From: Roseateles sp.
GTDB taxonomy: Bacteria > Pseudomonadota > Gammaproteobacteria > Burkholderiales > Burkholderiaceae_C
Length of the DNA stretch: 39,706 bases
Assembly: GCA_016790285.1 (NCBI GenBank)
Contig: JAEUPJ010000037.1
Coordinates: 1 to 39,706 of the forward strand
Direction of reading: 5' to 3'
The notes under the pieces were generated by a model, which worked only from the letters and a program-made list of their open reading frames with translations, searched no databases and was not told the DNA's origin. Made by a program: the position numbers and the translations under genes. This document shows, in pieces, positions 14,900-38,564 of the stretch. The first letter of the stretch is position 1. Every line of letters begins with the position of its first letter.

Positions 14900-17281
14900 A
14901 TGGTGACTTCGCCCCTGCCGCTCGACGAGGACCAGCGCCTGGCCCGGCTGGCCGCGCTGTCCGTCATGGACACCGAGCCTGAGCCCTTGTTCGACCACCT
15001 CACGGCCCTGGCCGCACAGATCTGCGGCACGCCCGTCGCGCTGCTCGGCCTGGTGGACGAGCGGCGGCAGTGGTTCAAGGCGGCCGTGGGTTTCGGCCGG
15101 CACGAGACGCCGCGCGCCCTGACCTTCTGTGCCCACACGCTGGCGGGCGAAGGTCTCTTCGAAGTGCCCGACGCGCTGCTGGACGAGCGCTTCGCCCAGC
15201 ATCCCGACGTGCTGGCCCAGCCGGCGCTGCGCTTTTACGCCGGTGTGCCCATCCGGCTGGACGACGGCAGCCACCCCGGCACCTTGTGCGTCGTGGACTT
15301 CCGCCCGCGCGAGCTGGACGAGCGCCAGCGCGAGGCGCTGCTGCGCCTGGCCGACGCGGCGGCCGAGGCCCTGATGATGCGCGAGCGGCTGCAGGCGCGC
15401 AGTGCCGTCGGCGACCCCGCCGCGCCCTTTGCCGTGCTGGCCGAGACCGCGCCGATGGGCGTCTTTCGCACCGATGCCGCCGGGCGCTTCACCTACACCA
15501 ACGCGAGCTGGCAGGCCGCCAGCGGCCTCACGGCCGAGGAGAGCCTGGGTGACGGCTGGGCGGCCACGCTCGTGCCCGAAGACCGCGCCTGCGTGCTGGA
15601 CCACTGGCGGCGCAGCGTCGAGCGGCGCGAGCCCTTCGAGATGCGCTACCGCGCCCGGCGTGACACGGGGCTGCGCCAGTTCTGGGCGCGTGCGCGGCCC
15701 TTGCCGGGGCCAGGCGGTGCGCTCATCGGCTACGTGGGCATCGTGGAGGACGTGACCGACCGCATCACGGCGGAGCGCGAACTGCGCGAGAGCAAGGCCC
15801 TGCTGGACCGCACCGGGCGCGTGGCCGGCATCGGCGGCTGGAGCCTGGACCTGCAGACCGAGGAGCTCGTCTGGAGCGACCAGACCTGCCGCATCCATGA
15901 CCTGGAGCCCGGGCACAGCCCGACGCTGCAGGAATCGTTCAGCTACTACAAGCCCGAGGCGCGCGCCGCCATCCAGGCCGCCGTGCGCCGGGGCATGGAG
16001 CATGGCGAGCCGTGGAGCCTGGAGCTGCCCCTGGTCACGGCCAAGGGGCGGGAGATCTGGGTGCTGGCGCAGGGGCAGGTGGACTGGCAGGACGGCGTGC
16101 CCGTGCGGCTGGTGGGCGCCTTCCAGGACGTGACCGAGCACCACCGCGCGGCGGTCGAGCTGGAGCACAACCGGCAGCGGCTGCGCGCGCTGTACGAGTC
16201 CACTCCGGCCTTGATGCACTCGGTGGACGCCGCGGGCCGGCTGCTCAGCGTGTCGGATCGCTGGCTGGAGCGGCTGGGCTACAAGCGCCAGCAGGTCATC
16301 GGCCGGGCGCTGGACGACTTCATGACGCCGGAGTCGGCCCAACAGGCGCGCGAGCGGCACCGGCCGGCGCTGTGGCGCGACGGCCAGTTGACGGACTGCG
16401 CCGTGCAGCTGATCAGCGCCGACGGCGGGCTGCGCGACGTGCTCATCTCCGCCGTGGCCGAGTACACGGCCGAGGGCCGGCCGCTGCGCGCGCTGGCGCT
16501 GGTGGACGACATCACCGAGGACCTGCAGCGCCGCGCCGAGCTCGCCCACGAGCAGCAGATGCGCCGCCAGACCGAGCGGCACGTGCAGGAGCTCGACCAG
16601 CTGCTGCGCGAACGCTCGGAGATGCTCGACGTGCTGGCCCACGAGGTGCGCCAGCCCCTGAACAACGCCAGCGCCGCGCTGCAGAGCGCCGCCGCCAGCC
16701 TCGCCGGCCAGGGCGAGCGCGAGGCGCAGATGCGGCTCACCCGGGCGCAGTCGGTGCTCAGCCAGGTGCTGGCCGGTGTCGACAACACGCTGGCAGCGGC
16801 CAGCCTGCTGGCGGGCGGCGGGCGCATTGCGCGGGAGGATGCCGACATCGACACCCTCATCGCCGTCACCATTGCCGACCTGCCCCGCGAGCAGCGCGGG
16901 CGCATCGTGGTGCACCGCCACACCGCCACGCGCACCGCCCTGATGGACATGAGCCTGTTGCGGCTGGCGCTGCGCAACCTGCTGTCCAACGCGCTGAAGT
17001 ACGCGCCGGGTGTCAGCACGGTGGCGCTGCACGTGATGGACTTCGACGAGCCGCCCGCCCTGCAGCTCGAGGTGGCCGACGCGGGCCCGGGCATTCCGCG
17101 CGAGCTGCTGCCGCGGCTTTTCACGCGCGGCGCGCGAGGCAGCGGGGGCACGGAGTCCACCCACGGCCTGGGGCTGTACATCGTGCGCCGCGTCATGGAC
17201 ATGCACGGGGGCCGCGCCGAACTGCTGCGCACCGGCCCCCTGGGCACGGTCATGCGGTTGACGTTGCCCCAGGCCGACTAG
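14900..17281 (+). CDS. GAF-PAS-PAS-PAS sensor histidine kinase
   Basis: 793 residues, no transmembrane segment, so a cytoplasmic sensor. Order: GAF about 25-160 (EPLFDHLTALAAQICGTPVA, ALLGLVDERRQWFKAAVG), PAS1 about 175-295, PAS2 about 300-420, PAS3 about 425-545 each with its C-terminal PAC strand (YVGIVEDVTDR, LVGAFQDVTEH, ALVDDITEDL), a coiled coil, HisKA with His at about 581 in LAHEVRQPLNNA, and ATPase with N-box NLLSNALKYAPG, ADAGPGIP and HGLGLYIVRRVMDMHGGRAE. It lacks a receiver domain and no regulator is next to it; it could phosphorylate receivers of the following cluster or act elsewhere. A strong hairpin follows the gene, so it is probably transcribed separately from the 17388 operon. 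Ligand unknown. Confidence 0.9.
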   Translation: MVTSPLPLDEDQRLARLAALSVMDTEPEPLFDHLTALAAQICGTPVALLGLVDERRQWFKAAVGFGRHETPRALTFCAHTLAGEGLFEVPDALLDERFAQHPDVLAQPALRFYAGVPIRLDDGSHPGTLCVVDFRPRELDERQREALLRLADAAAEALMMRERLQARSAVGDPAAPFAVLAETAPMGVFRTDAAGRFTYTNASWQAASGLTAEESLGDGWAATLVPEDRACVLDHWRRSVERREPFEMRYRARRDTGLRQFWARARPLPGPGGALIGYVGIVEDVTDRITAERELRESKALLDRTGRVAGIGGWSLDLQTEELVWSDQTCRIHDLEPGHSPTLQESFSYYKPEARAAIQAAVRRGMEHGEPWSLELPLVTAKGREIWVLAQGQVDWQDGVPVRLVGAFQDVTEHHRAAVELEHNRQRLRALYESTPALMHSVDAAGRLLSVSDRWLERLGYKRQQVIGRALDDFMTPESAQQARERHRPALWRDGQLTDCAVQLISADGGLRDVLISAVAEYTAEGRPLRALALVDDITEDLQRRAELAHEQQMRRQTERHVQELDQLLRERSEMLDVLAHEVRQPLNNASAALQSAAASLAGQGEREAQMRLTRAQSVLSQVLAGVDNTLAAASLLAGGGRIAREDADIDTLIAVTIADLPREQRGRIVVHRHTATRTALMDMSLLRLALRNLLSNALKYAPGVSTVALHVMDFDEPPALQLEVADAGPGIPRELLPRLFTRGARGSGGTESTHGLGLYIVRRVMDMHGGRAELLRTGPLGTVMRLTLPQAD

Positions 17282-17387: not shown

Positions 17388-20300
17388 ATGCCCTTGCGCC
17401 CCGATCCCACCGTGCTGGAGGACTTGACCGACCTGGCCTGGGCGGGGCAGCACCAACGTCTCATCGATGCGAGCGGCGCCTGGCCTCACGACGGCCGGGT
17501 GCTGGAGCTGCGCGTGGAGAGCTTCATTGCGCTGGGCGACCTGGCGGCGGCTGCGCAGGCGGCCGACGGGCTGGCGCGGCTGGCGCAGCGGCGCGCCGAG
17601 TGGCGGTTGCGCGCGCAGCTGGCGCTGGGATTGGTGCAGATGCGCCGGGGCGAGCTGGTCGCGGCCATCGCCACGGCCGAGGCTGCGCTCGAAGCCGCCG
17701 GCAGCGACCCGCTGGACCGCGCCTACGCGCTGGCGCTGCTGGCCGAGGCGCGCTGCCGCAGCCAGCGCGAGCCGGCGATGGCGCTCGCGCAGGTGCGCGA
17801 AGCGGCCCGCTTCTTCGCCGCGGCGGGGCGGGCGGTGCAGCAGGGGCGCTGCGCCTATGTGGAGTCGCTGCTGCTGGGCATGCTGGGCGAGGTCGCCGCG
17901 GCCCGCGTGGCTGCCGAAACCGCCCTGGCGCTCGCCCAGGCCACCGGCGACCTGCTCGGCCAGGGCAATGCGCACAACGCGCTGACCTTCAACAACCCCG
18001 ACCTGGCCGACTGCCTGCGCCGCGCCAAGCTCGCGCTGGCGGCTTTTGCCTCCGCCGGCTACGCCGAGCGCCAGGGCACCGCCATCCACAACATCGGCAA
18101 CCACTACGTCACGCTGGGGCTGAACCGCCGGGCGCGGCGCCACTACCTGGCGGCACTGGACATCTGGCGCCGCTCGGGGGCCACGGCGCTGCTGCCCTAC
18201 ACGCTGACGGCGCTGGCGCGGCTGGACCTGGAGTCAGGTGCGCTGGCCGGTGCGCGCGCCTATGCCGACGAGGTCGAGGCGCTCGGCCTGGCCCGCCAGA
18301 ACCCGGGCTTTCGCTCCGAGATCGCACGGCTGCGCGGCGAGATCGCCATGGCCCAGGGCGACGCCGCGGGTGCGGCGGCCTTGTTCAGCCTGGCGCTGGC
18401 GCATTCGCCGTCGGCGGCACAGCGCATGGCCGACCTCGGGCTGGTGGCCTGGGCCGAGCTCGCCGCGGGCCGGCTCGCGCAGGCGCTGCAGGCCAGTGGC
18501 GAGGCCGCCGGCCTGCACGCCGCGCAACGCCTGGCCCCGCTGGAGAACCTGGACCTGCCCACGCTGTGGTGGCGGCGCTGCGAGGCGCTCGGCGCAGCGG
18601 GGCGGCGCCGTGACGCCGCCGTCGCGCTGGCGCGGGCCTACCGCTTCCTGTGCCTGCGCCTGGGCGGCCTGTCCGACGAAGGGCTGCGACGCAACTCGCT
18701 GGCCAAGCGGCCGGTGGCGCGTGCGGTGGTGCAGGCATGGCTCGGCAGCGGCGGGCGGCCGCGGCATCTGGCCGGCGCCATCCACCTGGACGAGCGGTTC
18801 GGGCGCCAGGTCGACGTGGGCCTGCGCCTGGCCGAGCTTGGCACCGGCGCGGAGCTGCACGAGTTCCTGGTGGACGAGTCCGCCGAGGTCAGCGGCGCGG
18901 AGCGCGTGCTCCTCGTGCTGGAGGACCGCGGCGGGCAGCGCCGCATCGCCAGCCATCTGCTGCCGCAGGCAGAGGCGGGGGGCGAGCTGGTGCTGCTGCA
19001 GGCCATCACGCCCTGGCTGGACGAAGCCCGCAGCACGCGCGCGGCTGCGCTGCGCATCGGGCCCGAAGGTGCGCCCGACGTGCAGCAGCGCTCGTGCCTG
19101 GTCGCGCCGTTGATCGCCGAGCGCGAGCTGCTCGGCTACCTCTACGCCGACCTCGACGGCAGCTTCGGGCGCTTTCGCGAGGCCGACCGCGACCTGCTCG
19201 TCATGCTGGCCGCGCAGGCCGCCGTCGCGCTGGCCAACCTGCGGCTGCGCGAGGGCCTGGAGCTGAGGGTGGCCGAGCGCACGGCCGAGCTGCTGGCGAG
19301 CAAGGCGCAGGTGGAGCGGCGCGTGCAGGAGCTCGCCATGCTCAACAGCCTGCAGCAGAGCATTTCGCCGGAGCTGAGCTTCGAGGCCATCATCGAGCGC
19401 GTGGGCGACCGCCTGTGCGAACTGCTCAAGACCCAGGACATCGGCATCCGCTGGTACGACCCGGTGAGCGGCCTCAACCACTACCTCTACGAGCGCGAGC
19501 ACGGCATGCCCATCCAGCTGGCGCCGGAGCGCCCCGCGCCGGACGGCCCGTTCGAGCGGATGCGCCGCACGCGCGAGCCGCTGGTCTGCCGCAACCTGGC
19601 CGAGATCGAGGCCGCCGGGCTGCTGGCCGTGCCGGGCACCGACCAGGCCCTGTGCTTTGCCAATGTGCCCATCATCGGCAGCGACCAGGTGCTGGGCTCC
19701 ATCCTCGTGGAGAGCTACGAGCGCGAGGACGCCTTCAGCGAGGCGGACGTGCGCTTCCTGAGCACGGTGGGCGCCAGCGTCGGCGTGGCGCTGGAGAACG
19801 CGCGGCTTTTCGACGAGATCCAGCGCCGCAACCGCGAGAGCGCGGCGCTGGCGGAGGTGGGCCGCGAAATCTCTTCCACGCTGGACCTGGCCACGGTCAT
19901 GAACCGCATCGCGCTGCACGCCAAGGAGCTGCTGGCCGCGGACAACAGCGCCGTCTTCGTGCCCGAGGAGGAAGCGGGCGGCGGCGCAGACAAGCGCTAC
20001 CGGGCCATCGTGGCGGTGGGCGGCTATGCGCTTGCGCTGCGGGACGCCGTCATCACGGCCGGCGAGGGCATCATCGGCTCCCTCATCGCCAAGGGCGAGC
20101 CGGGCGTCATCAACGCCACCCGCGAGGACCCGCGCGGCGTGCGCATGGAGGGCACCGACGAGGACCCCGACGAGCGCATGATGGTGGCGCCGCTGCGCGC
20201 CGGCCCGCGTGTGGTGGGGGCGCTGGCGGTCTGGCGGCTGGGGGGCAAGCCCTTCATGCGCAGCGAGCTGGACTTCCTCGTGGGGCTGGGCCTGGCGGCG

Positions 20301-21503
20301 TCGGTCGCGATGGAGAACTCGCGGCTCTTTGCCGAGGCGCAGGCCGCCAAGGCCGCAGCCGAGCAGGCCAACGCGGCCAAGAGCGCCTTCCTGGCCACCA
20401 TGAGCCACGAGATCCGCACGCCGATGAACGCCGTCATCGGCATGAGCGGGCTGCTGCTGGACTCCCCGCTCAACGACGAGCAGCGCGACCACGCGGCCAC
20501 CATCCGCGAGGCTGGCGAGGCGCTGCTGACCATCATCAACGACATCCTGGACTTCTCCAAGATCGAGGCCGGCCGCATGGACGTGGAGAGCGCGCCCTTC
20601 GTGCTGCGCGACTGCGTGGACGCCGCGGTGGACCTGATCGCCCCGCGCGCACGTGAAAAGGGCCTGGCGCTGGCGGTGGACATCGCGCCCGGCGTGCCGG
20701 CCGCCGTCGTGGGCGATGTGACCAAGCTGCGGCAGATCCTGCTGAACCTGCTGTCCAACGCGGTGAAGTTCACCGAGGCGGGCAGCGTCAGCGTGGAGGT
20801 CGAGGCCGCCCCCGTGCAGGACGAGGTGGAGCTGCGCTTCGTGGTGCGCGACACCGGCATCGGCCTCACCCCCGCGGGCCTGGCGCGCCTCTTCCAGAGC
20901 TTCAGCCAGGCCGACGCCAGCACCACGCGCAAGTACGGCGGCACGGGGCTGGGGCTGGCCATCAGCCGGCGCATGGCCGAGCTGATGGGCGGGCGCATGT
21001 GGGCCGACAGTGACGGGCCCGGGCACGGCGCGCGGTTCAGCTTCACGATGCGGGCCGCCGTGGCCACCGGCATCAGCGCGCCGCTGCGCCGCCAGCGTAC
21101 CCAGCCGGTGGTGACGCAGAACCTCGCCGAGCGGCACCCGTTGCGCATCCTGCTGGCCGAGGACAACGTCGTGAACCAGAAGCTCGCGATGCGGCTGCTG
21201 CAGCAGATGGGCTACCGCGCCGACCTGGCCGCCAACGGGCTGGAGGCCATCGAGGCCGTGCAGCGCCAGGTGTACGACCTGGTGCTGATGGACGTGCAGA
21301 TGCCCGAGATGGACGGGCTCGAAGCGTCGCGCCGCATCAGCGGCGAGGCCTCCAGGCCGCGCATCGTCGCGATGACGGCCAACGCCATGCAGGGCGACCG
21401 CGAGGTCTGCATGGCCGCGGGCATGGACGACTACCTCACCAAGCCGATCCGGGTCGAAGAACTCGCGGCGGCGCTGACGAAAACCGCGGCCAGGGAGGCC
21501 TGA
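17388..21503 (+). CDS. Hybrid histidine kinase: TPR-like region, three GAFs, HisKA, ATPase, receiver
   Basis: 1371 residues, cytoplasmic. Residues 1-430 are Ala/Leu/Arg helical repeats of TPR type. Three GAF domains follow at about 480-625, 660-815 and 825-985 (each ends in an ALENARLF-type helix: [40 protein letters not shown]). A coiled coil separates the first two. HisKA has His1007 in [10 protein letters not shown], the ATPase has [25 protein letters not shown] and [11 protein letters not shown], and the C-terminal receiver has LLAEDNVVN, Asp1302 in [11 protein letters not shown] and a TKPIRVEE lysine. The layout resembles the C-terminal half of large kinase-AAA-TPR-GAF hybrid kinases but without the AAA part. 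First gene of the cluster; the next ATG follows its TGA with no gap. Because it carries its own receiver, phosphate probably passes on to the HPt protein at 25928. Confidence 0.9.
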
Positions 21504-23698
<2,195 letters not shown>

Positions 23699-23702
<4 letters not shown>

Positions 23703-25843
23703 CGCCGGACGAGCTGCGCGAGCGCCTGCGCCTGGCCGAGGCCCGGGCCGAGCAGCGCGAGGCCGAGCTGGCCGTGCTCAATGCCGTGCAGGAGGCGCTG
23801 GCCGGGCAGCTCGAGCTGGCGGCGATCTACTCCGCCGTGGGCGACCGGGTGCGCGCGGTGTTCGGCGGCGAGCGTGACCTGCAGATCCGCGTCGTCGACG
23901 TGGAACGGGGCCGCATGGATGTGCCCTACCGCATCCACCAGGGGCAGTCCGTGCCCGTGTACGGCCAGGTGTTGCGCGGCTTCACGGCCGAGGTCGTGCG
24001 CACGCGGCGCACGCTCGTCGTCAACCGCGACCTGCAGGCCCTGGGCGACCGCCTGGGCAGCACGCCGGTGCAGGCTGGCGGCAGGCAGCCGCGCTCCCAG
24101 GTGCTGGTGCCCGTGCTGACCGGCGGGCGGGTGGGCGCCAGTGTGGGTGTCGTGCTCAGCGTGCATGACATGGACCGCGAGGACGCCATCAGCGAGTCGG
24201 ACGTGCGGCTGCTGGAGACGATCGCCGGCGCCATGGGCGTGGCGCTCGAGAACGTGCGCCTGTTCAACGAGGCGCAGGCCGCGCGCGCGGCGGCCGAGGC
24301 GGCCAACCATGCCAAGAGCGCCTTCCTGGCCACCATGAGCCACGAGATCCGCACGCCGATGAACGCCGTCATCGGCATGACCGGGCTGCTGCTGGACACG
24401 CCGCTCAACGCCGAGCAGCGCGAGTTCGCGGCCACCATCCGCGACAGCGGCGAGGCGTTGCTGACCATCATCAACGACATCCTGGACTTCTCCAAGATCG
24501 AGGCCGGCCGCATGGAGATCGAGGCCCAGCCCTTCGACCTGCGCGACTGCATCGAGTCGGCCTTCGACCTGGTGGCGCCGCGCGCCGCCGAGAAGCACCT
24601 GGACCTGGCCTATCTCTTCGAGGGCGACGTGCCCACCTCGGTCAATGGCGACCTGACAAGGCTGCGCCAGGTGCTGCTGAACCTGCTGTCCAACGCGGTC
24701 AAGTTCACCGAGGCGGGCGAGGTGGTGCTCACCGTGGCGGCACGCCCGCTGGGCGAGGCCTGGGAGGTGGCCTTCACGGTGCGCGACACCGGCATCGGCC
24801 TGAGCGAGGCGGGGCTGGCCAAGCTCTTCCAGAAGTTCAGCCAGGCGGATGCCAGCACCAGCCGCAAGTACGGCGGCACGGGCTTGGGCCTGGCGATCTC
24901 GCGCCTGCTGGCCGAGCTGATGGGCGGGCGCATGTGGGCCGAGAGCGCCGGGCCGGGGCAGGGCGCGAGCTTTCACTTCACCATCGTGGCGCCGCTGGCC
25001 GAGCCGCAGACGCTGGCCCGGCGCGAGTTCTTCGGCCCGCAGCCCGCGCTCAAGGGGCGGCGGGTGCTGGTGGTCGACGACAACGCCACCAACCGCCGCG
25101 TGCTGGCGCTGCAGCTGGCCAAGTGGGGCCTGGTGCCGCAGGACACCGAGTTCCCCGCGCAGGCGCTGCAGTGGCTGCAGGCGGGCGAGCCGTTTGACCT
25201 GGCCATCCTGGACATGCACATGCCCGGCATGGACGGCGTGGCGCTGGCGCGCCGCATGCAGCCGCTGGCGCCCGCGTTGCCCCGGGTGCTGTTCAGCTCG
25301 CTGGGCCGCAAGGAGGTGGGCGAGGGCGCGGATGCTTTTGCGGGGTATCTGCACAAGCCGCTGCGCCAGAGCCAGCTGCATGACATGCTGATGGCGCAAC
25401 TGGCCGGCAAGGCGCTGGCCAGTGCGACACAGCCGGCCGCAGCGCGCCTGGATGCGGGCCTGGCGCAGCGCCACCCGCTGCGCATCCTGCTGGCGGAGGA
25501 CAACGTCGTGAACCAGAAGCTCGCCCTGCGGCTGCTGCAGCAGATGGGTTACCGCGCCGACGTGGCCGGCAATGGCATCGAGGCGCTGGAGGCGATCGAG
25601 CGCCAGGTGTACGACCTGGTGCTGATGGACGTGCAGATGCCCGAGATGGACGGGCTGGAGACCACGCGCCGCGCTGTGGCGCGCTGGGGAACTGCGCGGC
25701 CGCGCATCGTGGCGATGACCGCCAACGCGATGCACGGCGACCGCGAGGTGTGCCTGGCGGCCGGGATGGATGACTACATCACCAAGCCCATCCGCGTCGA
25801 GGCGCTGGCGCAGACCTTGCAAGACACGGTGGTGCGGTCATGA
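23699..25843 (+). CDS. Cytoplasmic GAF hybrid histidine kinase with two receivers
   Basis: 714 residues. A short coiled coil leads into one GAF domain (about 20-185: [20 protein letters not shown] to [14 protein letters not shown]). HisKA (His215 in [12 protein letters not shown]), ATPase ([36 protein letters not shown]), receiver 1 (Asp505 in [11 protein letters not shown]) and receiver 2 (Asp644 in [11 protein letters not shown]) follow. The kinase and receiver parts closely copy those of the neighbour at 21504, and the sensory part differs. Start ATG overlaps the previous stop (ATGA). It is followed by an 84-base gap before the HPt gene. No transmembrane segment is seen. Confidence 0.92.
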
Positions 25844-25927
25844 TGCGGGTGGCCGCAAGAGCCACGGGATCCATGCCGGATGTGCGCCAGTGCAGCGCAC
25901 GGCCCGGCGTGCAACACGGGGGTAGCC

Positions 25928-26269
25928 ATGGCAGTGATCGATGACGAGGTCTTCGCCGCGCTGGTGGACAGCGCGGGTGCGGACTTCATGCCCGAGCTGA
26001 TCGACTCCTTCCTGGAGGACGCGCCGCAGGGGCTGGCCGCATTGGAAGCGGCCATCGCGGCGGGTGACGCGGTCGGGTTCCGGCGCGCCGCGCATTCGCT
26101 CAAGAGCAACGGGGTCACGTTCGGGGCGCACGCCTTCGCCGAGGCTGCGCGGGCGCTGGAGCACACACCGCTGGGCGAGCTCGGCGACGCGGCCACCGCG
26201 CAGGTGCAGGCGCTGGCGGGGCTGTTCGACGGCGTGGCGGCTGCGCTGCGGGAGCGCCGCCATGCGTGA
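25928..26269 (+). CDS. Stand-alone HPt (histidine phosphotransfer) protein
   Basis: 113 residues, all helical, with phospho-accepting His56 in RAAHSLKSNGVTFGA, the classic HPt motif. Such proteins carry phosphate from the receiver of a hybrid kinase to the receiver of an output protein. Here it sits between three hybrid kinases and a receiver-cyclase, exactly where a shared relay is needed. ATG 25928 is preferred over the in-frame ATG at 25880: a GGGGG run lies just upstream, and the residues encoded from 25880 (CASAAHGPACNTG) do not fit the family. Its last eight bases overlap the start of the cyclase gene, implying coupled translation. Confidence 0.92.
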   Translation: MAVIDDEVFAALVDSAGADFMPELIDSFLEDAPQGLAALEAAIAAGDAVGFRRAAHSLKSNGVTFGAHAFAEAARALEHTPLGELGDAATAQVQALAGLFDGVAAALRERRHA

Positions 26270-27302
26270 CCGCCGCGCCAAGCGCGCCCGCATCCTGCTG
26301 GTGGAGGACAACCGCGTCAACCGGCTGCTGCTGGCCCGGCACGTGGAGCTGCTCGGGCACCAGGTTGAGTCGGTGGAAGACGGCCTGGCCGCGCTCACGC
26401 GCGTGCAGCAGGAGTCCTTCGACCTGTTGCTGGTGGACATCCACATGCCCGGCATGGACGGCTTCGAGCTGCTGGAGAAGCTGCGCGCCAGCGCCGAGTT
26501 GCATGAGCTGCCGGTCATCGTGACCTCGGCGGTGGAGGGCCTGGACAGCGTGGTGCGCTGCATCGAGCTGGGTGCCGAGGACTACCTGCACAAGCCCGTG
26601 AACCTCGTGCTGCTGAAGGCGCGCATCAACGCGAGCCTGGAGCGCAAGCGGCTGCGCGACCAGCAGCGCGAGCTGGTGCGGCGCTTTGCCACGCGCGAGG
26701 TGGCCGAGGACATGGAGGCCGCCGGCTTTGCGCTGGGCGGGCGCAAGGTGCAGGCGACGGTGATGTTCTGCGACATCCGTGGCTTCACGACGCTGGTCGA
26801 GTCCCAGCCACCCGAAGACATCATCGAGCTCCTCAACACCTACTACACCCTGATGTTCGCGGCCATCAACGGCCACGGGGGCGTGGTCAACCAGATGATC
26901 GGGGATGGGCTGATGGCCGTTTTCGGGGCGCCGCAGCCGCTGCAGGCGGCGGGCCGCTGCGCGGTGCTGGCCGCCGCCGAGATGATCGAGATGGTCGCGC
27001 AGTTCAGCGAGGAGCAACGCACGGCCGGGCGGCCCGAGATCCACATCGGCGTGGGCATTGCCAGCGGCGACATGGTGGCCGGCTACACCGGCACCCGCCA
27101 GCGCGCCACCTACACCTGCATCGGCGACGCGGTGAACATCGCCGCCCGGCTGGAGGCCCACACCAAGGTGGCGGGCCATGCGGTGCTCTTCGACGCGGCC
27201 ACGCAGGCCCAGCTCGGCGAGGACCTGCCCAGCCAGGCGCTCGGCCCCGTGCAGTTCAAGGGCAAGACCTGCACGGTCGACGTCTACGGGCTGACGCTGT
27301 GA
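26262..27302 (+). CDS. Receiver-class III nucleotide cyclase
   Basis: 346 residues. The receiver is at 10-125: LLVEDNRVN, Asp59 in LVDIHMPGMDG, Lys in LHKPVN. A helical linker follows, then a class III cyclase catalytic domain at about 160-345. Metal-binding aspartates are Asp171 (FCDIRGFT) and Asp215 (IGDGLMAVFG). Transition-state residues Asn292 and Arg296 are in DAVNIAARLE. The position that normally holds the adenine-selecting Lys is Gln211 (NQMIGD), and its partner is Thr285 (YTCIGD), so the nucleotide made is not certain. Phosphorylation through the HPt at 25928 presumably controls dimerisation and activity. The following two genes encode cyclic-nucleotide-binding proteins, which strongly suggests local use of the product. 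Confidence 0.9.
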   Translation: MRDRRAKRARILLVEDNRVNRLLLARHVELLGHQVESVEDGLAALTRVQQESFDLLLVDIHMPGMDGFELLEKLRASAELHELPVIVTSAVEGLDSVVRCIELGAEDYLHKPVNLVLLKARINASLERKRLRDQQRELVRRFATREVAEDMEAAGFALGGRKVQATVMFCDIRGFTTLVESQPPEDIIELLNTYYTLMFAAINGHGGVVNQMIGDGLMAVFGAPQPLQAAGRCAVLAAAEMIEMVAQFSEEQRTAGRPEIHIGVGIASGDMVAGYTGTRQRATYTCIGDAVNIAARLEAHTKVAGHAVLFDAATQAQLGEDLPSQALGPVQFKGKTCTVDVYGLTL

Positions 27303-29131
27303 TGACCGAGGGCTACCACGACCGATTGCTCGGCGAGCTGCTCGCCCAGGCGTTTGGCGAGCTGGATGCGGCCACGCTCGCGCTGCTGCGCGAGCAGCTG
27401 ACGTGGGTGGAGGTGGCGGGTGGCCAGGCGCTCATGCAGCAGGGCGAGCCAGGCGATTCGATGTACCTCTCGGTCAGCGGCCGGCTGCGGGCCTACGTGA
27501 GCCAGGACGGCGAGGCGCCGCGCATGGTGCGCGAGATGGGGCGGGGCCAGGTGATTGGCGAGATGAGCCTCTACACCGATGCGCCGCGCTCCGCCACGGT
27601 CGTGGCCATCCGCGACTCGGTGCTGGTGCGGCTGGACAAGGCGCAGTTCATGCGGCTGATCGAGCGCCAGCCCGGCGTGGGCGTGGCGCTCACGCGGCAG
27701 ATCGTGCACCGCCTGCAGACCGAGCACGCGCCGGCACCGTTCGCTGCGCCGGTGGTGCAGGCGCTGCTGCCCATCACCCCCGGCGTGGACGCGCCGGCGC
27801 TCGCGCGCGGGCTGGCGCAGGAGCTGTCGCGCTTCGGCCGCGTGCGCGTGCTGGACGCCGCCGCCGTGCAGGCCGCGGTGGGCGAGGCCGCGGACGAGAG
27901 CGAGCGCTACCGGCAGGTATCGCTGTGGCTGGACGAGGTCGAATCGGGGCACGACTTCGTGCTGCTCGTGGCCGACGACACCCCCACAGCCTGGACGCAG
28001 CGCTGCTGCCGCCATGCCGACGAAGTGCTGCTGCTGGCCGATGCGGCCGCGCCCGTGGCCGTGCATGCCAGCGAGCGCCAGTGCCTGGTGGAGCGCCCGC
28101 CGCGCACCGAGGCGGCCGAGATCCTCGTGCTGCTGCACCCGGCCGACACGCCAGCCCCGCGCGGCACGGCGGCGTGGCTGGCGCGCCGGCCGGTGGCCGA
28201 CCACTTCCACGTGCGGCCGACCCTCGCGCGCGACCTGGCGCGCCTGGCGCGGCTGCAGGCGCGCCGGGCGGTGGGCCTGGTGCTCGCCGGTGGCGGCGCG
28301 CGGGGCTTCTCGCACCTCGGGCTGCTGCGCGCGCTGCAGGAGGCGGGCGTGGAGGTCGACTGCGTGGGCGGCACGAGCATGGGGTCGGTCATGGCGGCCC
28401 TGGCCGCGGCTGACCAGCCGCTGGGGCGCGTCATGGACGTGGCGCGGGCCGCGTTCAAGGTCAACCCGACCGGGGATTTCAACCTGCTGCCGCTGATCTC
28501 GCTGATCCGCGGTCGGCGGCTGCGCGTCGCGCTGGACCGTGCGCTGGGCAGCCTCGTCGGCGCCGACGCCGGCATCGAGGACCTTTGGAAGCCGTTCTAC
28601 TGCGTGGCCACGAACTACTCGCAGGCCTCGGAGGCGCTGCTCACGCACGGGCGGCTGGAGCGGGCCCTGCGTGCGAGCACGGCCATCCCCGGCGCGCTGC
28701 CGCCCGTCATCGTCGATGGCGACCTGCTGTGCGACGGCGGCAGCTTCAACAACTTCCCCGTCGACGTGATGCGGGCGCGCCGGGGCGTGGGCCTCGTCAT
28801 CGGCGCGGACCTCAGCCTGCACAAGGTGCGCAAGGTGGACTTCGACGAGGTGCCCAGCCCCTGGGCGCTGCTGCGCGACCGCTGGCGCCCGCGGGCCCAG
28901 CGCCGCTACCGGCTGCCGGCGCTGTCGGCCTACCTGCTCAACGTGACCATCCTGTACAGCAGCTCGCGCCGCCGCGCCGCGCGGGCCGCCTGCGACGTCT
29001 ACTTCAACCCGCCGCTGGAGCGTGTCGGCCTGCTGGCCTGGCAGCGCTTCGATGCCATCGTCGAACAGGGCCATGCGCACGCCCTGGGCGTGCTGGCCCA
29101 ACCCGATGTCCGTGCCCTGCTCAACCCATGA
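27302..29131 (+). CDS. Patatin-like phospholipase with N-terminal cyclic-nucleotide-binding domain (NTE-like)
   Basis: 609 residues. The N-terminal CNB domain (about 20-135) has a phosphate-binding cassette with VIGEMSLYTDAPRSATVVA, keeping the Glu and Arg that contact cyclic nucleotide. The middle part (about 150-310) resembles the linker seen in bacterial and eukaryotic neuropathy target esterase homologues. The patatin domain (about 322-500) has glycine-rich oxyanion loop GGGARGFSHLG, nucleophile Ser359 in GGTSMGS and Asp478 in DGGSFNNFP, the full Ser-Asp dyad. It probably hydrolyses (lyso)phospholipids in response to a cyclic nucleotide. ATG 27302 overlaps the cyclase stop by one base; GTG 27299 is an in-frame alternative one codon earlier. 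No transmembrane helix is evident; membrane association would be peripheral. Confidence 0.92.
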   Translation: MTEGYHDRLLGELLAQAFGELDAATLALLREQLTWVEVAGGQALMQQGEPGDSMYLSVSGRLRAYVSQDGEAPRMVREMGRGQVIGEMSLYTDAPRSATVVAIRDSVLVRLDKAQFMRLIERQPGVGVALTRQIVHRLQTEHAPAPFAAPVVQALLPITPGVDAPALARGLAQELSRFGRVRVLDAAAVQAAVGEAADESERYRQVSLWLDEVESGHDFVLLVADDTPTAWTQRCCRHADEVLLLADAAAPVAVHASERQCLVERPPRTEAAEILVLLHPADTPAPRGTAAWLARRPVADHFHVRPTLARDLARLARLQARRAVGLVLAGGGARGFSHLGLLRALQEAGVEVDCVGGTSMGSVMAALAAADQPLGRVMDVARAAFKVNPTGDFNLLPLISLIRGRRLRVALDRALGSLVGADAGIEDLWKPFYCVATNYSQASEALLTHGRLERALRASTAIPGALPPVIVDGDLLCDGGSFNNFPVDVMRARRGVGLVIGADLSLHKVRKVDFDEVPSPWALLRDRWRPRAQRRYRLPALSAYLLNVTILYSSSRRRAARAACDVYFNPPLERVGLLAWQRFDAIVEQGHAHALGVLAQPDVRALLNP

Positions 29132-29754
29132 TCGACACCCTCGCCACCGTCATCGGCCTGATCGGCGCCGCGCTGATGCTCGCCAGCTACCTCATGAAGA
29201 GCATGCTGCCGCTGCGCATCGCCGCACTCACGGCCTGCTGCTTCCTCGTCGCCTACGGTGCGCTCAAGGCGGCGTTGCCCACGCTGCTGCTCTACGGCGC
29301 CCTGATTCCCATCAACATCAAGAAGACGCTGCAGATCAGGAAACTCGTGAAGGCGATCGAGAACGCGCGTGCCGACGCGCCGGTGTCCGAGTGGCTGCTG
29401 CCGCACATGCACCGCCGAACCGTCGCGGGTGGCACGACGCTCTGGCGCCAGGGCGACGCGGCCACCGAGATGCTCTACCTGGACAGCGGCACCTTGCGCC
29501 TGGTTGAGTACGACGAGCTGTTGCAACCTGGCAGCCTGGTCGGCGAGATCGGCCTGTTCGCACCGGACAATCGGCGCACCCTCACCCTGGAGGCGGTGGG
29601 CGACTGCGTCGTCTACAGCCTGACCGCTGAAGAAATGGCCCTGCTGTACTACCAGAACCCCAAGCTCGGTTTTCATGTCATGCGCCTCATCGTTGCGCGC
29701 CTCATGCGCGACGTGCAGCGCCACAGGCCTGCCCCAGCGCCCGCGGCCGCATGA
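29128..29754 (+). CDS. Small membrane protein with C-terminal cyclic-nucleotide-binding domain
   Basis: 208 residues. Residues 1-70 hold two or three hydrophobic segments (TVIGLIGAALMLASYL, IAALTACCFLVAYGAL, ALPTLLLYGALIPINI) that resemble the YgjV/Imp membrane family (LR-x-x-A pattern, YG, PINI). Residues 85-200 form a Crp-like CNB fold with TTLWRQGDAATEMLYLDSG and GEIGLFAPDNRRTLTLEAV, again with the Glu and Arg of the binding cassette. There is no DNA-binding domain. ATGA overlap with the patatin gene and with the next gene places it firmly in the operon. It is probably a second receptor for the cyclase product, acting in the membrane; the output is unknown. Confidence 0.8.
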   Translation: MIDTLATVIGLIGAALMLASYLMKSMLPLRIAALTACCFLVAYGALKAALPTLLLYGALIPINIKKTLQIRKLVKAIENARADAPVSEWLLPHMHRRTVAGGTTLWRQGDAATEMLYLDSGTLRLVEYDELLQPGSLVGEIGLFAPDNRRTLTLEAVGDCVVYSLTAEEMALLYYQNPKLGFHVMRLIVARLMRDVQRHRPAPAPAAA

Positions 29755-31463
29755 AGGGGCAGCTGAGTCTGCGCAGCCAGCTCAGCCTGGTGCTGGGCGG
29801 GCTGGCCCTGGCCATCCTCGGTGGTGTGGGGGGCTACCTGGGCGGCATCGCCACGGACGAGCTGTTCACGGCCCAGCAGGCCGTGGTGCGCTCGACGGCG
29901 CAGTCAGCCGCCGAGCTGCTGGCCTCGCAGCTGCGTGACCGAGAGCGGGAGATCGAGCTGCTGAGCCTGGCGCCACACCTCGCGCAGGGCGGGCTGGACA
30001 GCAGCCTCGTGCGCGATTCGCTTGACCGCCGCGCCGCGCTGCATGACGAGTTCGCCTGGCTCGGCGTGGCCGACCCCGATGGCAAGGTCCTGCAGGCCAC
30101 GGGCGGCATGCTGATGGGCCGCTCGGTTGCGCAGCGGGAGTGGTTCATCGCCGCGCGCGAGCGCGTCTACGTGGGCGACGTCCACGAGGCCAAGCTGCTG
30201 GCGACGCTGCTGCCCGCGCAACCCAGCGGCGAGCCAACCCGCTTCATCGATTTCGCAGCCCCCATCCGCGATGCCGACGGCCGCCTGCGGGGCGTGGTGG
30301 GCGCGCATGCCCACTGGCGCTGGATCACGGGCCTGGTGGACGGCGTCACCCGAAGGCAGAGCCCGGGCGGGGGCATCGACGCCCTCATCCTGGACCGCGA
30401 CGGGCGCGTGCTGTACCCGGAGGCCCTGAAGGCGGCGCAGGCCGACGGGCAGCCCGTGCTGCCCACGGCGCTCGTCAACGGCCGTGTCGAAGGCGCGCTG
30501 CGCTTTGGTGACGGCAAGGAGTACCTCACGAGCGAGGCCGCCCTGCACGCGCGCACCAATGCCGAGCTGGGTTGGCGCATCGTGGCCCGCCAGCCGATGG
30601 AGCTCGCCCTGCGGCCGGTGCACGAGCTGCGCCGGGAGCTGGCGCTGCTGGGCGTCTTCGTGGCCGCGGCGCTGGTGCTGTCGGCGCTCGTGCTGGCCCG
30701 CCGGGTGAGCCGCCCGGTGGAGGAACTCGCACGCATCGCCCGTCGCGTGGAGACCGAGCGCGTGGTGCCGGAGTTCCCGGAGCGGCCGGCCTACCTGGAA
30801 CTGGCCCACCTCAGCGACGCGATGCGCTCCATGACGCGCTCGTTGCTGGACACCGAGCATGAGCTGCAGCAGTCCAACGCCACGCTGGAGTCGCAGGTAC
30901 AGGAGCGCACCGCCGAGCTGCAGGCCGCCAATGCGGCGCTGGAGCACCTGGCCACGCGCGACCCGCTCACCGGGCTGCACAACCGGCGCAACCTGGACAC
31001 CCGGCTGGACGAGGCACTGGCGCTGGACCGGCGCTACGGCGTGCCGCACGGGCGCGTGCACGGGCTGCTGCTGATCGACGTGGACCACTTCAAGCACATC
31101 AACGACGCCCACGGCCACCCGGCCGGCGATGCGGTGCTGCGCCAGCTGGCCCAGCTGCTGCTCGCCACGGTGCGGGCGAGCGACGTGGCGGCGCGGTTCG
31201 GCGGCGAGGAGTTCGCCGTGCTGCTGCCCGAGCTGACCGGGGCGGTGGACGCGGTCATGACCGCGGAGAAGATCCGCCAGGCCGTGGAGTCGACGCGCTT
31301 CGGCGCCGTGGGCAAGGTCACGGTCAGTGTCGGGGTGAGCCTGGCCACGCCCGAGGACGCCGATGCGCGACCGCTCATCGACCGGGCGGATGCGGCCCTT
31401 TACGAAGCCAAGCGCAGCGGGCGCAATTCGGTCGTGCTCAAGAGCGCCGAGCCCGCGGCCTGA
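29751..31463 (+). CDS. dCache-HAMP-GGDEF diguanylate cyclase
   Basis: 570 residues. There is a transmembrane helix near 15-33, a periplasmic dCache sensor (about 35-295; FAWLGVADPDGKVLQATGG, SVAQREWFIAARERVYVGD, DFAAPIRDADGRLRGVVGAH), and a second transmembrane helix (LALLGVFVAAALVLSALVLA). HAMP, a coiled coil (LQQSNATLESQVQERTAELQ) and a GGDEF domain follow, with GGEEF at 484-488 and the inhibitory I-site RASD at 475-478, five residues before it. It should make c-di-GMP with product inhibition. It is the last gene of the run, overlapping its neighbour by ATGA. Its presence couples a periplasmic small-molecule input and c-di-GMP to the phosphorelay cluster; a PilZ receptor lies at 4580. Confidence 0.93.
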   Translation: MKGQLSLRSQLSLVLGGLALAILGGVGGYLGGIATDELFTAQQAVVRSTAQSAAELLASQLRDREREIELLSLAPHLAQGGLDSSLVRDSLDRRAALHDEFAWLGVADPDGKVLQATGGMLMGRSVAQREWFIAARERVYVGDVHEAKLLATLLPAQPSGEPTRFIDFAAPIRDADGRLRGVVGAHAHWRWITGLVDGVTRRQSPGGGIDALILDRDGRVLYPEALKAAQADGQPVLPTALVNGRVEGALRFGDGKEYLTSEAALHARTNAELGWRIVARQPMELALRPVHELRRELALLGVFVAAALVLSALVLARRVSRPVEELARIARRVETERVVPEFPERPAYLELAHLSDAMRSMTRSLLDTEHELQQSNATLESQVQERTAELQAANAALEHLATRDPLTGLHNRRNLDTRLDEALALDRRYGVPHGRVHGLLLIDVDHFKHINDAHGHPAGDAVLRQLAQLLLATVRASDVAARFGGEEFAVLLPELTGAVDAVMTAEKIRQAVESTRFGAVGKVTVSVGVSLATPEDADARPLIDRADAALYEAKRSGRNSVVLKSAEPAA

Positions 31464-31469
31464 GCCGGC

Positions 31470-32159
31470 TCAGATCAGCTGCAGCGGCGCGCGAAACACG
31501 TAGCCCACGCGCGACTTGCTCTGCAGCGGCACGAGGGTGGGCGTGGCGCGCTCGATGCGGCGACGCAGGCGGTAGATGGTGGCCGACAGGCCGTCGTCCG
31601 TCTCGCCCTCGTTCACCTCACGGCCGAGCTTGTTCAGCAGCGTCTCGCGCGTGACGGGCTCGCCGCCGGCCTGGGCAAAGCATTCCAGCAGCTGCCGGTC
31701 GGCCTCGCTGAGCTGGATGCGGGTGCCGTCGGGCACGATCAGCTCGCCGCTGGCGCGGTCCAGCTTCCAGACGGCGTCGGCCGCGGACGGCTTGGCCACG
31801 CGCCGCTGCACGGCGGCAATCGCCAGGGCCACCTGCTCGAACTGCACCGGCTTGACCAGGTACATGTCCGCACCGGCCGTGATCACTTCCCTGAACACTT
31901 CAGGCCCGAGGCGGCCGGAGACGACCACGACACCGGCGTCGGTGCGCCGGCGCAGGATCTTGATGAGCTCCACGCCGTTGACGCCGGGCAGCATCAGGTC
32001 GACCAGGTAGAAGTCGAAGGAGAAAGCGTCGGGAGCGGCCAGCAGCGCATTGCTGTCATCGAACCGGCTGACGGTGATGCCCTGCTCCTGGAGGAACTGG
32101 GCGAGGAATTCGGAATATTCGGCGTCGTCGTCGATGAGGGCGAGGTTCTTGGGCTGCAT
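31470..32159 (-). CDS. OmpR/PhoB-type response regulator
   Basis: 229 residues. The receiver at 3-118 has LIDDDAEYS, phospho-acceptor Asp54 in YLVDLMLPG, the Ser of VVVVSGRLG and Lys in YLVKPVQ. The winged-helix DNA-binding domain at about 130-226 has IQLSEADRQLLECFAQ, TRETLLNKLGREV, LSATIYRLRRRIE and KSRVGYVF. No kinase is adjacent on its own strand. It ends seven bases from the diguanylate cyclase stop, converging on the phosphorelay operon, so it may be a second phosphate acceptor of that system or an orphan. There is a GGAG about 12 bases before the ATG, somewhat far. Confidence 0.92.
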   Translation of the reverse strand: MQPKNLALIDDDAEYSEFLAQFLQEQGITVSRFDDSNALLAAPDAFSFDFYLVDLMLPGVNGVELIKILRRRTDAGVVVVSGRLGPEVFREVITAGADMYLVKPVQFEQVALAIAAVQRRVAKPSAADAVWKLDRASGELIVPDGTRIQLSEADRQLLECFAQAGGEPVTRETLLNKLGREVNEGETDDGLSATIYRLRRRIERATPTLVPLQSKSRVGYVFRAPLQLI

Positions 32160-37117: not shown

Positions 37118-38551
37118 ATGCAGACCGCTTTTGACGAGATGAATGCTGCGGGGCCCGTCACCCGCGCCCACTACGAGTCCTACGCCCGCTGGCTGGCCGA
37201 CCAGCCCGAGAGCCTGATGCGCGAGCGGCGCGAGCAGGCTGAACTGATCTTCCGCCGCGTGGGCATCACCTTCGCCGTCTACGGCGACAAGGACAGCGGC
37301 GAGGGCACCGAGCGCCTGATCCCCTTCGACCTCATCCCGCGGGTCATCCCGGCGGCCGAGTGGACGTCCATGCAGGCGGGCCTGGCCCAGCGGGTGACGG
37401 CGCTCAACCGCTTCATCCACGACGTCTACCACGGCCAGGAGATCCTCAAGGCCGGCCTCGTGCCCGCCGACGAGATCCTGAACAACGCCCAGTTCCGCAA
37501 GGAAATGATGGGCGTGGATGTGCCGGGCGGCGTCTACAGCCACATCGCCGGCGTCGACATCGTGCGGGCTGGCCACGCCGACGGCAGCGGCCACTACTAC
37601 GTGCTGGAAGACAACCTGCGCGTGCCCTCCGGCGTGAGCTACATGCTGGAGAACCGCAAGATGATGATGCGGCTCTTCCCCGAGCTGTTCGTCAACCACC
37701 GCATCGCGCCGGTCGCCCACTACCCGGACTTGCTGCTGGACACCCTGCGCAGCGTCGCCCCCTCCGGCGTGGCCGACCCTACCGTCGTCGTCATGACGCC
37801 GGGCATGTACAACTCGGCCTACTTCGAGCACGCCTTCCTCGCGCAGCAGATGGGGGTGGAGCTCGTGGAGGGGCAGGACCTGTTCGTCGACGGGGGTTTT
37901 GTGTACATGCGCACCACGCGCGGCCCCAAGCGCGTGGACGTCATCTACCGCCGCATCGACGACGACTTCCTCGACCCCAAGGTGTTCCGCCCCGACTCGC
38001 AGCTCGGCTGCGCGGGCCTTGTGGACGCCTACAAGGCCGGCAAGGTGACGCTGTCCAACGCCATCGGCACGGGCATCGCGGACGACAAGTCCATCTACCC
38101 CTACGTGCCGAAGATGATCGAGTTCTACCTCGGCGAAAAACCCATCCTGCAGAACGTGCCCACCTACGTCTGTCGCGAGAAGGACGACCTGGCCTACACG
38201 CTGGCCCACCTGCCGGAGCTGGTGGTCAAGGAGGTGCACGGCGCCGGGGGCTACGGCATGCTCGTGGGGCCTGCGGCCACCAAGGCCGAGATCGAGGCCT
38301 TCCGCGCGCAGCTGGTGGCCAACCCGAGCAACTACATCGCGCAGCCGACGCTGGCACTCAGCACCTGTCCGACCTTCGTGGAGAGCGGCATCGCGCCCCG
38401 TCACATTGATCTGCGACCCTTCGTGCTGTCGGGGGCAAGCGTACGCATGGTGCCCGGCGGCCTGACCCGCGTGGCCTTGAAGGAGGGCTCGCTCGTGGTG
38501 AACAGCAGCCAGGGCGGCGGCACCAAGGACACCTGGGTGCTGGAAGACTGA
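37118..38551 (+). CDS. Circularly permuted ATP-grasp type 2 family protein
   Basis: 477 residues. Landmarks of the family are RREQAELIFRRVGITFAVYG, IPFDLIPRVIPAAEW, LNRFIHDVYHGQEILKAG, YYVLEDNLRVPSGVSYMLEN, VVMTPGMYNSAYFEHAFLA, the DVIYRRIDDDFLDP metal region and VVKEVHGAGGYGMLVGP nucleotide loop. The family is predicted to ligate amino or carboxyl groups using ATP, forming a peptide-like bond on an unknown substrate. A strong GAGGAG ribosome binding site lies 5 bases upstream of ATG 37118. The alpha-E gene follows after 13 bases, the usual partner. Cytosolic. Confidence 0.92.
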   Translation: MQTAFDEMNAAGPVTRAHYESYARWLADQPESLMRERREQAELIFRRVGITFAVYGDKDSGEGTERLIPFDLIPRVIPAAEWTSMQAGLAQRVTALNRFIHDVYHGQEILKAGLVPADEILNNAQFRKEMMGVDVPGGVYSHIAGVDIVRAGHADGSGHYYVLEDNLRVPSGVSYMLENRKMMMRLFPELFVNHRIAPVAHYPDLLLDTLRSVAPSGVADPTVVVMTPGMYNSAYFEHAFLAQQMGVELVEGQDLFVDGGFVYMRTTRGPKRVDVIYRRIDDDFLDPKVFRPDSQLGCAGLVDAYKAGKVTLSNAIGTGIADDKSIYPYVPKMIEFYLGEKPILQNVPTYVCREKDDLAYTLAHLPELVVKEVHGAGGYGMLVGPAATKAEIEAFRAQLVANPSNYIAQPTLALSTCPTFVESGIAPRHIDLRPFVLSGASVRMVPGGLTRVALKEGSLVVNSSQGGGTKDTWVLED

Positions 38552-38564
38552 GGGAGACGACAAG

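What the first reader, a model, noticed from the sequence alone, without database searches (positions are those of the whole stretch)
17388..31463. A 14-kb multi-input phosphorelay that appears to end in a cyclic-nucleotide-controlled phospholipase and membrane receptor
Seen: eight same-strand genes, nearly all with overlapping or abutting start/stop codons: three hybrid kinases with different sensors, one HPt, receiver-class III cyclase, CNB-patatin, TM-CNB protein, diguanylate cyclase. Known: HPt proteins connect hybrid-kinase receivers to output receivers; CNB domains bind cyclic nucleotides. Inference: TPR/GAF, membrane and GAF inputs converge via one HPt on a cyclase whose product switches a phospholipase and a membrane protein. 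This would be a signalling route to membrane lipid remodelling, with c-di-GMP as a parallel output. The cyclase plus lipase/TM receptor arrangement is formally similar to the Pycsar and CBASS immune logic, though the regulatory kinases argue for environmental signalling.
Basis: partly seen in the sequence, partly recalled or inferred. Interest (0 to 1): 0.75.

Follow-up and report, generated by a model that had tools for sequence, protein, structure and literature searches.

The report
Kinase relay driving a cyclic-nucleotide switch
A bacterium carries a seven-gene set in which several sensors appear to feed one relay that controls an enzyme making a small messenger, which is probably read by a fat-cutting enzyme and a membrane protein encoded next door; the relay-plus-enzyme core is shared by distantly related bacteria.

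Summary
The eight genes are there as described; comparison changes borders and ranking. (1) Core: hybrid kinase, HPt and receiver-class III cyclase form a module in records labelled Beta- and Alphaproteobacteria and Chloroflexota. An HPt lies upstream in 72 of 80 retrieved cyclase loci (72 of the 74 at 50% identity or more). Phospho-acceptor and catalytic residues are intact. (2) Readers: the membrane CNB protein and the CNB-NTE-patatin are add-ons. In the genus, cyclase and full TM-CNB occur in the same 8 of 20 genomes, the patatin in 7 of those 8, all at one chromosomal site. (3) The diguanylate cyclase is a resident flank: 9 of 11 non-carriers read there also have it, so the c-di-GMP branch is not supported. 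(4) Elsewhere the readers sit near other cyclase types in a minority of cases (4 of 15 TM-CNB loci outside the genus, 5 of 22 patatins). (5) The adenine-reading lysine is absent in 72 of 72 aligned cyclases (Q 52, L 17, M 3), so the messenger need not be cAMP. Defence is unlikely. Phosphotransfer, product, ligand and lipase control are inferred.

The parts
17388..21503 (+).
   Evidence: Pfam; motifs; complete or nearly so in some carriers, fragments in others
21504..23702 (+). HK2: hybrid kinase with hydrophobic N-terminus, HisKA, HATPase, two receivers
   Evidence: Pfam; 5 to 6 hydrophobic segments before the kinase; motifs
23699..25843 (+). HK3: GAF hybrid kinase with two receivers; by best tblastn match the kinase type most often next to the HPt in other loci
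   Evidence: Pfam; maps
25928..26269 (+). HPt phosphotransfer protein, H56
   Evidence: Pfam; alignment; His kept in 70 of 70 clade loci with an aligned HPt
26262..27302 (+). Receiver-class III nucleotide cyclase: D59 acceptor, D171/D215 metal, N292/R296, base-reading pair Q211/T285
   Evidence: Pfam
27299..29131 (+). CNB - NTE P-loop-like - patatin phospholipase
   Evidence: Pfam; across 30 loci CNB Glu and Arg, GGGxR, the catalytic Ser and the Asp-Gly are kept, while the last Gly of GGGxRG and of DGG vary
29128..29754 (+). TM-CNB: hydrophobic N-terminus, probably three helices, then a CRP-type cyclic-nucleotide-binding domain
   Evidence: hydropathy; AlphaFold model (low confidence in the helices); Foldseek
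29751..31463 (+). dCache-GGDEF diguanylate cyclase: resident right flank, not part of the variable set
   Evidence: Pfam; follows upHK0 in 9 of 11 non-carrier genomes read
14900..17281 (+). GAF/PAS histidine kinase (upHK0): resident left flank
   Evidence: Pfam; present at the site in 11 of 11 non-carriers read
31470..32159 (-). OmpR-type response regulator (dnRR): resident right flank
   Evidence: Pfam; found in 20 of 20 genus genomes

Best explanation
The unit is a seven-gene set (17388-29754): a many-to-one phosphorelay that controls a class III cyclase, plus two dedicated readers of its product. Signals are sensed by interchangeable hybrid kinases. Each passes phosphate through its C-terminal receiver to the single HPt (H56) and on to D59 in the receiver of the cyclase, which changes cyclic-nucleotide output. 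The nucleotide then binds the CNB of the patatin, switching a phospholipase, and the CNB of the membrane protein, giving a membrane-localised response. Shown by sequence: gene order, domains, intact phosphotransfer, catalytic and ligand-pocket residues, deep conservation of kinase-HPt-cyclase, and joint presence/absence of cyclase and TM-CNB in the genus. Inferred: phosphotransfer itself, its sign, the identity of the nucleotide, ligand binding by the readers, and membrane lipid remodelling.
For: HPt upstream of the receiver-cyclase in 72 of 80 loci, HPt plus kinase in 67 of 80. Receiver Asp in 71 of 72 aligned clade members (one gap), catalytic D/D/N/R in 72 of 72, HPt His in 70 of 70. The three kinases have different sensors, but HisKA are 83-89% and C-terminal receivers 79-80% identical to each other, against 71-73% for the ATPase domain. 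The same 8 of 20 genus genomes hold cyclase and full TM-CNB, 7 of those 8 the patatin; kinase sets vary. Patatin and TM-CNB distances track each other (rho 0.98, 21 pairs), and the pair also occurs in another genus without a cyclase on the 20 kb read (L038). Readers near unrelated cyclases: patatin then CHASE2-cyclase 20 bp apart (L149), patatin - acetyl-CoA hydrolase/GNAT protein - AAA/TPR cyclase (L185), TM-CNB - Crp-like - SAM/AAA cyclase (L152). CNB Glu and Arg kept in 30 of 30 patatin loci and in 19 of 19 TM-CNB rows.
Against: 11 of 23 TM-CNB loci show no cyclase on the stretch fetched. 17 of 22 patatins have no cyclase seen within 5 kb. So the readers can exist without this cyclase. One carrier (G004) lacks the patatin. 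Distances of cyclase and TM-CNB agree only moderately (rho 0.50, 28 pairs), those of HPt with patatin or TM-CNB weakly (0.43, 0.38) and those of HK1 with them hardly (0.22, 0.14; 10 pairs). The own genome has 13 CNB matches and 3 class III cyclases, the window's included, so cross-talk is possible. For the animal NTE, the start of one abstract (PMC9319352, listing) says that its CNB domains were shown not to be essential for something that the listing cuts off. No biochemistry.
Confidence: 0.68

Rival explanations
1. The relay and cyclase are real, but the product acts globally through Crp-like regulators. The patatin and TM-CNB are passengers, or read a nucleotide made elsewhere.
For: 74 of 80 cyclase loci have neither TM-CNB nor patatin within 4.5 kb downstream, and 70 of 80 have no CNB within 5 kb on either side, some on short contigs. 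The own genome holds 13 CNB matches. Readers occur without a cyclase nearby.
Against: 4-bp overlaps Cyc/Pat/TM-CNB; same 8 of 20 genomes; the set is absent together in non-carriers; readers near other cyclase types in other genera.
Confidence: 0.17
2. It is an anti-phage system of the Pycsar or CBASS kind: the cyclase senses infection and the patatin and membrane CNB protein kill the cell.
For: Cyclase plus CNB-TM and CNB-phospholipase resembles the writer/effector layout; PADLOC PycC models match the cyclase (best E 1.1e-24) and CNB-effector models match both readers; patchy presence, 8 of 20.
Against: PADLOC matches cover the cyclase and CNB domains that such proteins share with many others. 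Fixed chromosomal site between genes present in non-carriers. No plasmid match for the cyclase-patatin-TM-CNB stretch at megablast sensitivity. The TM-CNB protein, the only one searched there, matches 3 phage-collection records, over half its length at 29% identity, two annotated as catabolite activator and one not annotated. The kinase-HPt-cyclase core is found without these effectors in most retrieved loci.
Confidence: 0.06
3. The phosphorelay restrains the cyclase: phosphorylated D59 or a phosphatase mode of the kinases lowers output, so the readers act when signals are absent.
For: Sequence gives no sign of control; hybrid kinases often also act as phosphatases (general knowledge).
Against: None from sequence.
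Confidence: 0.09

Closest known systems
Two-component controlled class III cyclases (e.g. cyanobacterial CyaC, a hybrid kinase-receiver-cyclase; recalled)
   Same: Receiver domain ahead of a class III cyclase domain; input by histidine kinases
   Different: Here a separate HPt and several separate hybrid kinases; base-reading Lys replaced by Gln/Leu/Met in 72 of 72 aligned members
NTE/PNPLA6 family (animal CNB-patatin phospholipases)
   Same: CNB plus NTE P-loop-like plus patatin domains (PF00027, PF24179, PF01734)
   Different: One CNB against three cyclic-nucleotide sites in the animal protein (PMC9025805, passages); encoded beside a cyclase
POPDC (Popeye) proteins
   Same: Layout: probably three transmembrane helices, then a CNB; the closest non-POPDC sequence is said to be CRP (PMC6562197 and PMC5872366, passages)
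   Different: No match to Pfam PF04831 in 19 of 19 members scanned and none above cut-off in the own genome; has the CRP-type Glu/Arg pocket
Pycsar (PycC with PycTM/PycTIR)
   Same: Class III-type cyclase beside a CNB effector that can be membrane-bound
   Different: Kinase/HPt input, receiver domain, patatin reader, fixed chromosomal site, wide spread of the core without effectors
CBASS phospholipases (CapV/CapE; names recalled)
   Same: Patatin-type phospholipase thought to be switched by a nucleotide
   Different: CNB domain and mononucleotide cyclase; NCBIfam CBASS_lipase far below cut-off (19.8 against 200 bits)

Membership tests
Two-component phosphorelay with cyclase output | Kinase His, receiver Asp, HPt His, output receiver Asp all present | tested here: met
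Two-component phosphorelay with cyclase output | Conserved linkage of kinase, HPt and output regulator | tested here: met
   HPt 72 of 80, HPt plus kinase 67 of 80
Two-component phosphorelay with cyclase output | Phosphotransfer between the partners | not testable with these tools
   needs protein work
Class III adenylate cyclase | Metal Asp pair and transition-state Asn/Arg | tested here: met
   72 of 72 aligned clade members
Class III adenylate cyclase | Lys at the adenine-reading position | tested here: not met
   Q 52, L 17, M 3 of 72; position fixed by alignment to 5x4t and 6fht (Lys) and 2w01 (Glu); the role of the position is recalled
NTE/PNPLA6-like CNB-patatin | CNB, NTE P-loop-like and patatin domains in one chain | tested here: met
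   all three above Pfam cut-off
NTE/PNPLA6-like CNB-patatin | Phospholipase activity controlled by cyclic nucleotide | not testable with these tools
   needs enzyme assay
POPDC (Popeye) | Match to the Popeye domain model PF04831 | tested here: not met
   not among the families matched by 19 members at E up to 10; in the own genome only a sub-threshold match elsewhere, 11.9 bits
POPDC (Popeye) | Three transmembrane helices before a CNB-type domain | tested here: inconclusive
   hydropathy: two windows at 1.6, three at 1.2; model: helices 2-21, 27-42, 46-81, but pLDDT only about 51-64 there
Pycsar | Membership of a PycC clade | tested here: inconclusive
   PycC models match the cyclase domain, best E 1.1e-24, which other class III cyclases might give too; no tree was built
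Pycsar | PycTIR effector (CNB plus TIR) | tested here: not met
   PycTIR/TIR-effector models match only over the CNB; no TIR domain in Pfam
Pycsar | PycTM effector (CNB plus transmembrane) | tested here: inconclusive
   TM-CNB has that general layout; no hit named PycTM, but I did not check that the library holds such a model
Pycsar | Pyrimidine product and anti-phage activity | not testable with these tools
   needs assay
CBASS | CD-NTase | not tested
   none named among hits for the five proteins scanned; the rest of the window was not scanned with PADLOC

The most novel reading that the evidence does not exclude
The module carries a private messenger that is not canonical cAMP. The writer lacks the adenine-reading Lys in 72 of 72 aligned clade members, in records labelled Betaproteobacteria, Alphaproteobacteria and Chloroflexota. 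Both local readers keep the CNB Glu and Arg but are non-canonical where CRP reads adenine: by gapless alignment, TM-CNB has D195-V196 and the patatin E142-H143 in place of CRP T127-S128. Writer and readers would then form an insulated channel beside global cAMP/CRP signalling, with a bacterial NTE-type phospholipase and a Popeye-like membrane protein as its outputs.
Probability: 0.25. Interest if true: 0.85.

Novelty: new variant of a known kind. Interest (0 to 1): 0.6.

Why it matters
If right, it is a widespread way for bacteria to merge several environmental inputs, through one HPt, into a mononucleotide signal; ten literature searches (listed in Tried and rejected) returned no listing that describes it. 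It would also give a bacterial system in which it can be tested directly whether an NTE-type CNB-patatin is controlled by a cyclic nucleotide. The review read here (PMC9025805, passages) presents that control for the animal enzyme as suggested by its binding sites and by cell data. The conserved absence of the adenine-reading Lys raises the question of which nucleotide is made.

Tried and rejected
c-di-GMP branch: rejected, because the DGC follows upHK0 in 9 of the 11 non-carrier genomes whose site was read (G001, G003, G007, G009, G011, G013, G015, G016, G018; in G003 the DGC matches in two pieces, in G013 and G018 a TM-CNB remnant lies between) and is missing there in G005 and G008; G010 was not read. 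Three carriers (L032, L035, L036) have TM-CNB followed by dnRR without a DGC; L031 was not read as far as dnRR.

Popeye membership: rejected at model level; layout likeness kept as a lead. The structure search listed CRP-type and other CNB proteins in its first 50 rows; the model is modest (mean pLDDT 69, 7 sequences).

Defence system: considered and held unlikely.

Pycsar base-reading residues (PMC11224242, passages) were not mapped onto this cyclase, so a pyrimidine product is not excluded.

Literature: ten searches gave no listing that describes a kinase-HPt-receiver-cyclase-patatin unit. I saw listings only, and passages of four papers (PMC6562197, PMC9025805, PMC11224242, PMC5872366). Subscription papers are mostly not held.

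The 80 are not independent: L051-L053 are contigs also held as G012, G006 and G017, L071/L093 and L082/L086 are pairs from one assembly each, and several genera recur. Organism labels are the records' own and some MAG labels are doubtful. Locus maps rest on HMMs built here from few sequences and on a simple ORF caller. Dropped rows: one search aligned 86 loci; one search used 72 of the 74 named clade members, leaving out two partial ones and the six distant loci. In some searches all 22 patatin loci were examined; the 23 loci with a TM-helix match were examined, the two remnants left out.
Full report
What is in the window. Eight + strand genes run from 17388 to 31463 with almost no gaps. Pfam gives: HK1 with three GAF, HisKA, HATPase and one receiver; HK2 with HisKA, HATPase and two receivers behind 5-6 hydrophobic segments; HK3 with GAF, HisKA, HATPase and two receivers; HPt; receiver-class III cyclase; CNB - NTE P-loop-like - patatin; a short protein with a C-terminal CNB; dCache-GGDEF. 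The expected functional residues are present.

The core is widespread. In the map of these loci (HPt counted if its domain starts within 1.7 kb upstream of the cyclase domain on the same strand), 80 of 80 have the receiver, 72 an HPt, 71 a kinase and 67 both. The eight without HPt are six distant relatives at 37-41% identity (L123, L124, L125, L128, L129, L130), one contig that begins inside the cyclase (L121) and one exception (L071). Among relatives of 50% or more the figure is 72 of 74. Records are labelled Variovorax, Paucibacter, Rubrivivax, Inhella, Ruegeria, Leisingera, Sulfitobacter, Tateyamaria, Anaerolineales and others. The kinases ahead of the HPt often carry several GAF domains. 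In 72 of the 74 clade members that could be aligned, the receiver Asp is kept in 71 (one gap), the receiver Lys and the catalytic D/D/N/R in 72; the HPt His is kept in 70 of 70. The 80 are not independent of each other (see Tried and rejected).

Why one HPt for three kinases. The sensors differ, but the HisKA domains are 83-89% and the C-terminal receivers 79-80% identical in pairs, against 71-73% for the ATPase domain. That is what shared docking on one HPt would require; it is not proof of transfer. Across carriers the number and kind of kinases change while HPt-cyclase stays.

The variable set and its borders. The genus is represented by 20 genomes. Three of them match named contigs by length: G012 = Pelomonas sp. 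Root1237, G006 = a Comamonadaceae MAG, G017 = an uncultured Pelomonas MAG; placement in Roseateles is recalled. The flanking regulator is in 20 of 20. The cyclase is in 8 of 20, a full TM-CNB in the same 8, and the patatin at 80% or more in 7 of those 8, with a further 57% patatin elsewhere in the non-carrier G007. The site was read in 11 of the 12 non-carriers, all but G010. In 9 of the 11 the left kinase is followed by the DGC and then the regulator, the DGC of G003 matching in two pieces; in G005 and G008 the DGC is missing as well. Two of these 11, G013 and G018, keep a decayed C-terminal piece of TM-CNB between kinase and DGC. In a tree of the two flanking proteins (19 genomes) these two group with the window genome and the carrier G019, which points to loss there; elsewhere carriers and non-carriers are mixed and several nodes are weak, so the history of gains and losses is open. 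The unit is therefore HK1 to TM-CNB, 17388-29754, and the DGC belongs to the flank. Three carriers have no DGC between TM-CNB and the regulator (L032, L035, L036); L031 was not read that far.

The readers. Across 30 patatin loci the CNB Glu and Arg, the GGGxR motif, the catalytic Ser and the Asp-Gly are kept. The TM-CNB alignment (19 rows) has an invariant CNB Glu140 and Arg150. Its best solved relatives by profile are cGMP-dependent kinases and CRP, by single sequence CRP, and by fold CRP (from the modest model). Pairwise distances of patatin and TM-CNB agree closely among carriers (rho 0.98, 21 pairs), and both agree with the left flank (0.86 and 0.84, 15 pairs), in line with joint vertical descent. 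Other comparisons agree less: cyclase-patatin 0.73, cyclase-TM-CNB 0.50, HPt with the readers 0.43 and 0.38, HK1 with the readers 0.22 and 0.14.

Do readers follow cyclases elsewhere? Of 23 TM-CNB loci examined, 12 have a class III cyclase within 2.2 kb, all 8 carriers among them; outside the genus it is 4 of 15, one of these on the opposite strand. Three further named loci outside that set (L055, L068, L074) have the core cyclase followed by a TM-CNB. Of 22 genomes with a patatin in a 300-genome sample of the order, 5 have a cyclase within 5 kb (window, L149, L147, L159, L173), of which the window and L149 are immediate same-strand neighbours; in the other 17 none was seen, some on short contigs. 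Notable cases are L149 (patatin, then CHASE2-cyclase after 20 bp), L185 in the same genus (patatin, acetyl-CoA hydrolase/GNAT protein, AAA/TPR cyclase) and L152 (TM-CNB, Crp-like, SAM-cyclase-AAA). With three such cyclases in 5.88 Mb (one genome only), a random gene would lie within 5 kb of one in roughly half a percent of cases; this is a rough figure, not a matched control.

Which messenger? Aligned to solved cyclases, Q211 falls on the Lys of 5x4t and 6fht and on the Glu of 2w01, and T285 on the Thr of 5x4t. That 2w01 is a guanylate cyclase and that Lys/Glu decide between ATP and GTP is recalled. In 72 clade members this position is Q 52, L 17, M 3, never K or E, and the partner position is T in 72. 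At the CRP positions T127/S128, TM-CNB has D195/V196 and the patatin E142/H143. This is by gapless extension of a printed alignment and by hit ranges, and the residue numbers of the patatin's CRP-like match are recalled, so it is tentative. At the S128 position the paper read gives Ser/Thr for cAMP, Glu for cGMP and Asn for cUMP (PMC11224242, passages). The product is therefore open.

Verdict. A conserved multi-input phosphorelay to a class III cyclase, extended in this lineage by two CNB readers, one an NTE-type phospholipase and one a membrane protein of Popeye-like layout. It is a new variant of a known kind. Phosphotransfer, product, ligand binding and lipid remodelling remain inferences.

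Noticed in passing
window 14900-17281 and 31470-32159: A GAF/PAS histidine kinase and an OmpR-type regulator flank the variable set; the regulator is 90% or more identical in 19 of 20 genus genomes, the window's own included (77% in the other), a possible ancestral pair.
   Followed up: partly
L185:3257-10868: Second CNB-patatin in the same genus (G007), in a run with an acetyl-CoA hydrolase/GNAT protein and a 1212-aa cyclase-AAA-TPR protein.
   Followed up: partly
L148:7151-11074: CNB-patatin followed by a glutaminase-STAS-CNB protein, another enzyme with a CNB.
   Followed up: no
   Followed up: partly
L150:7527-10476: A TM-CNB homologue lies beside a 721-aa protein with eleven hydrophobic windows and a CNB.
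   Followed up: no
L039:7533-7856 and L050:14658-14939: A decayed C-terminal remnant of TM-CNB marks loss of the set in two genomes.
   Followed up: yes
window 37118-39524: Circularly permuted ATP-grasp gene followed by an Alpha-E domain gene, outside the finding.
   Followed up: no
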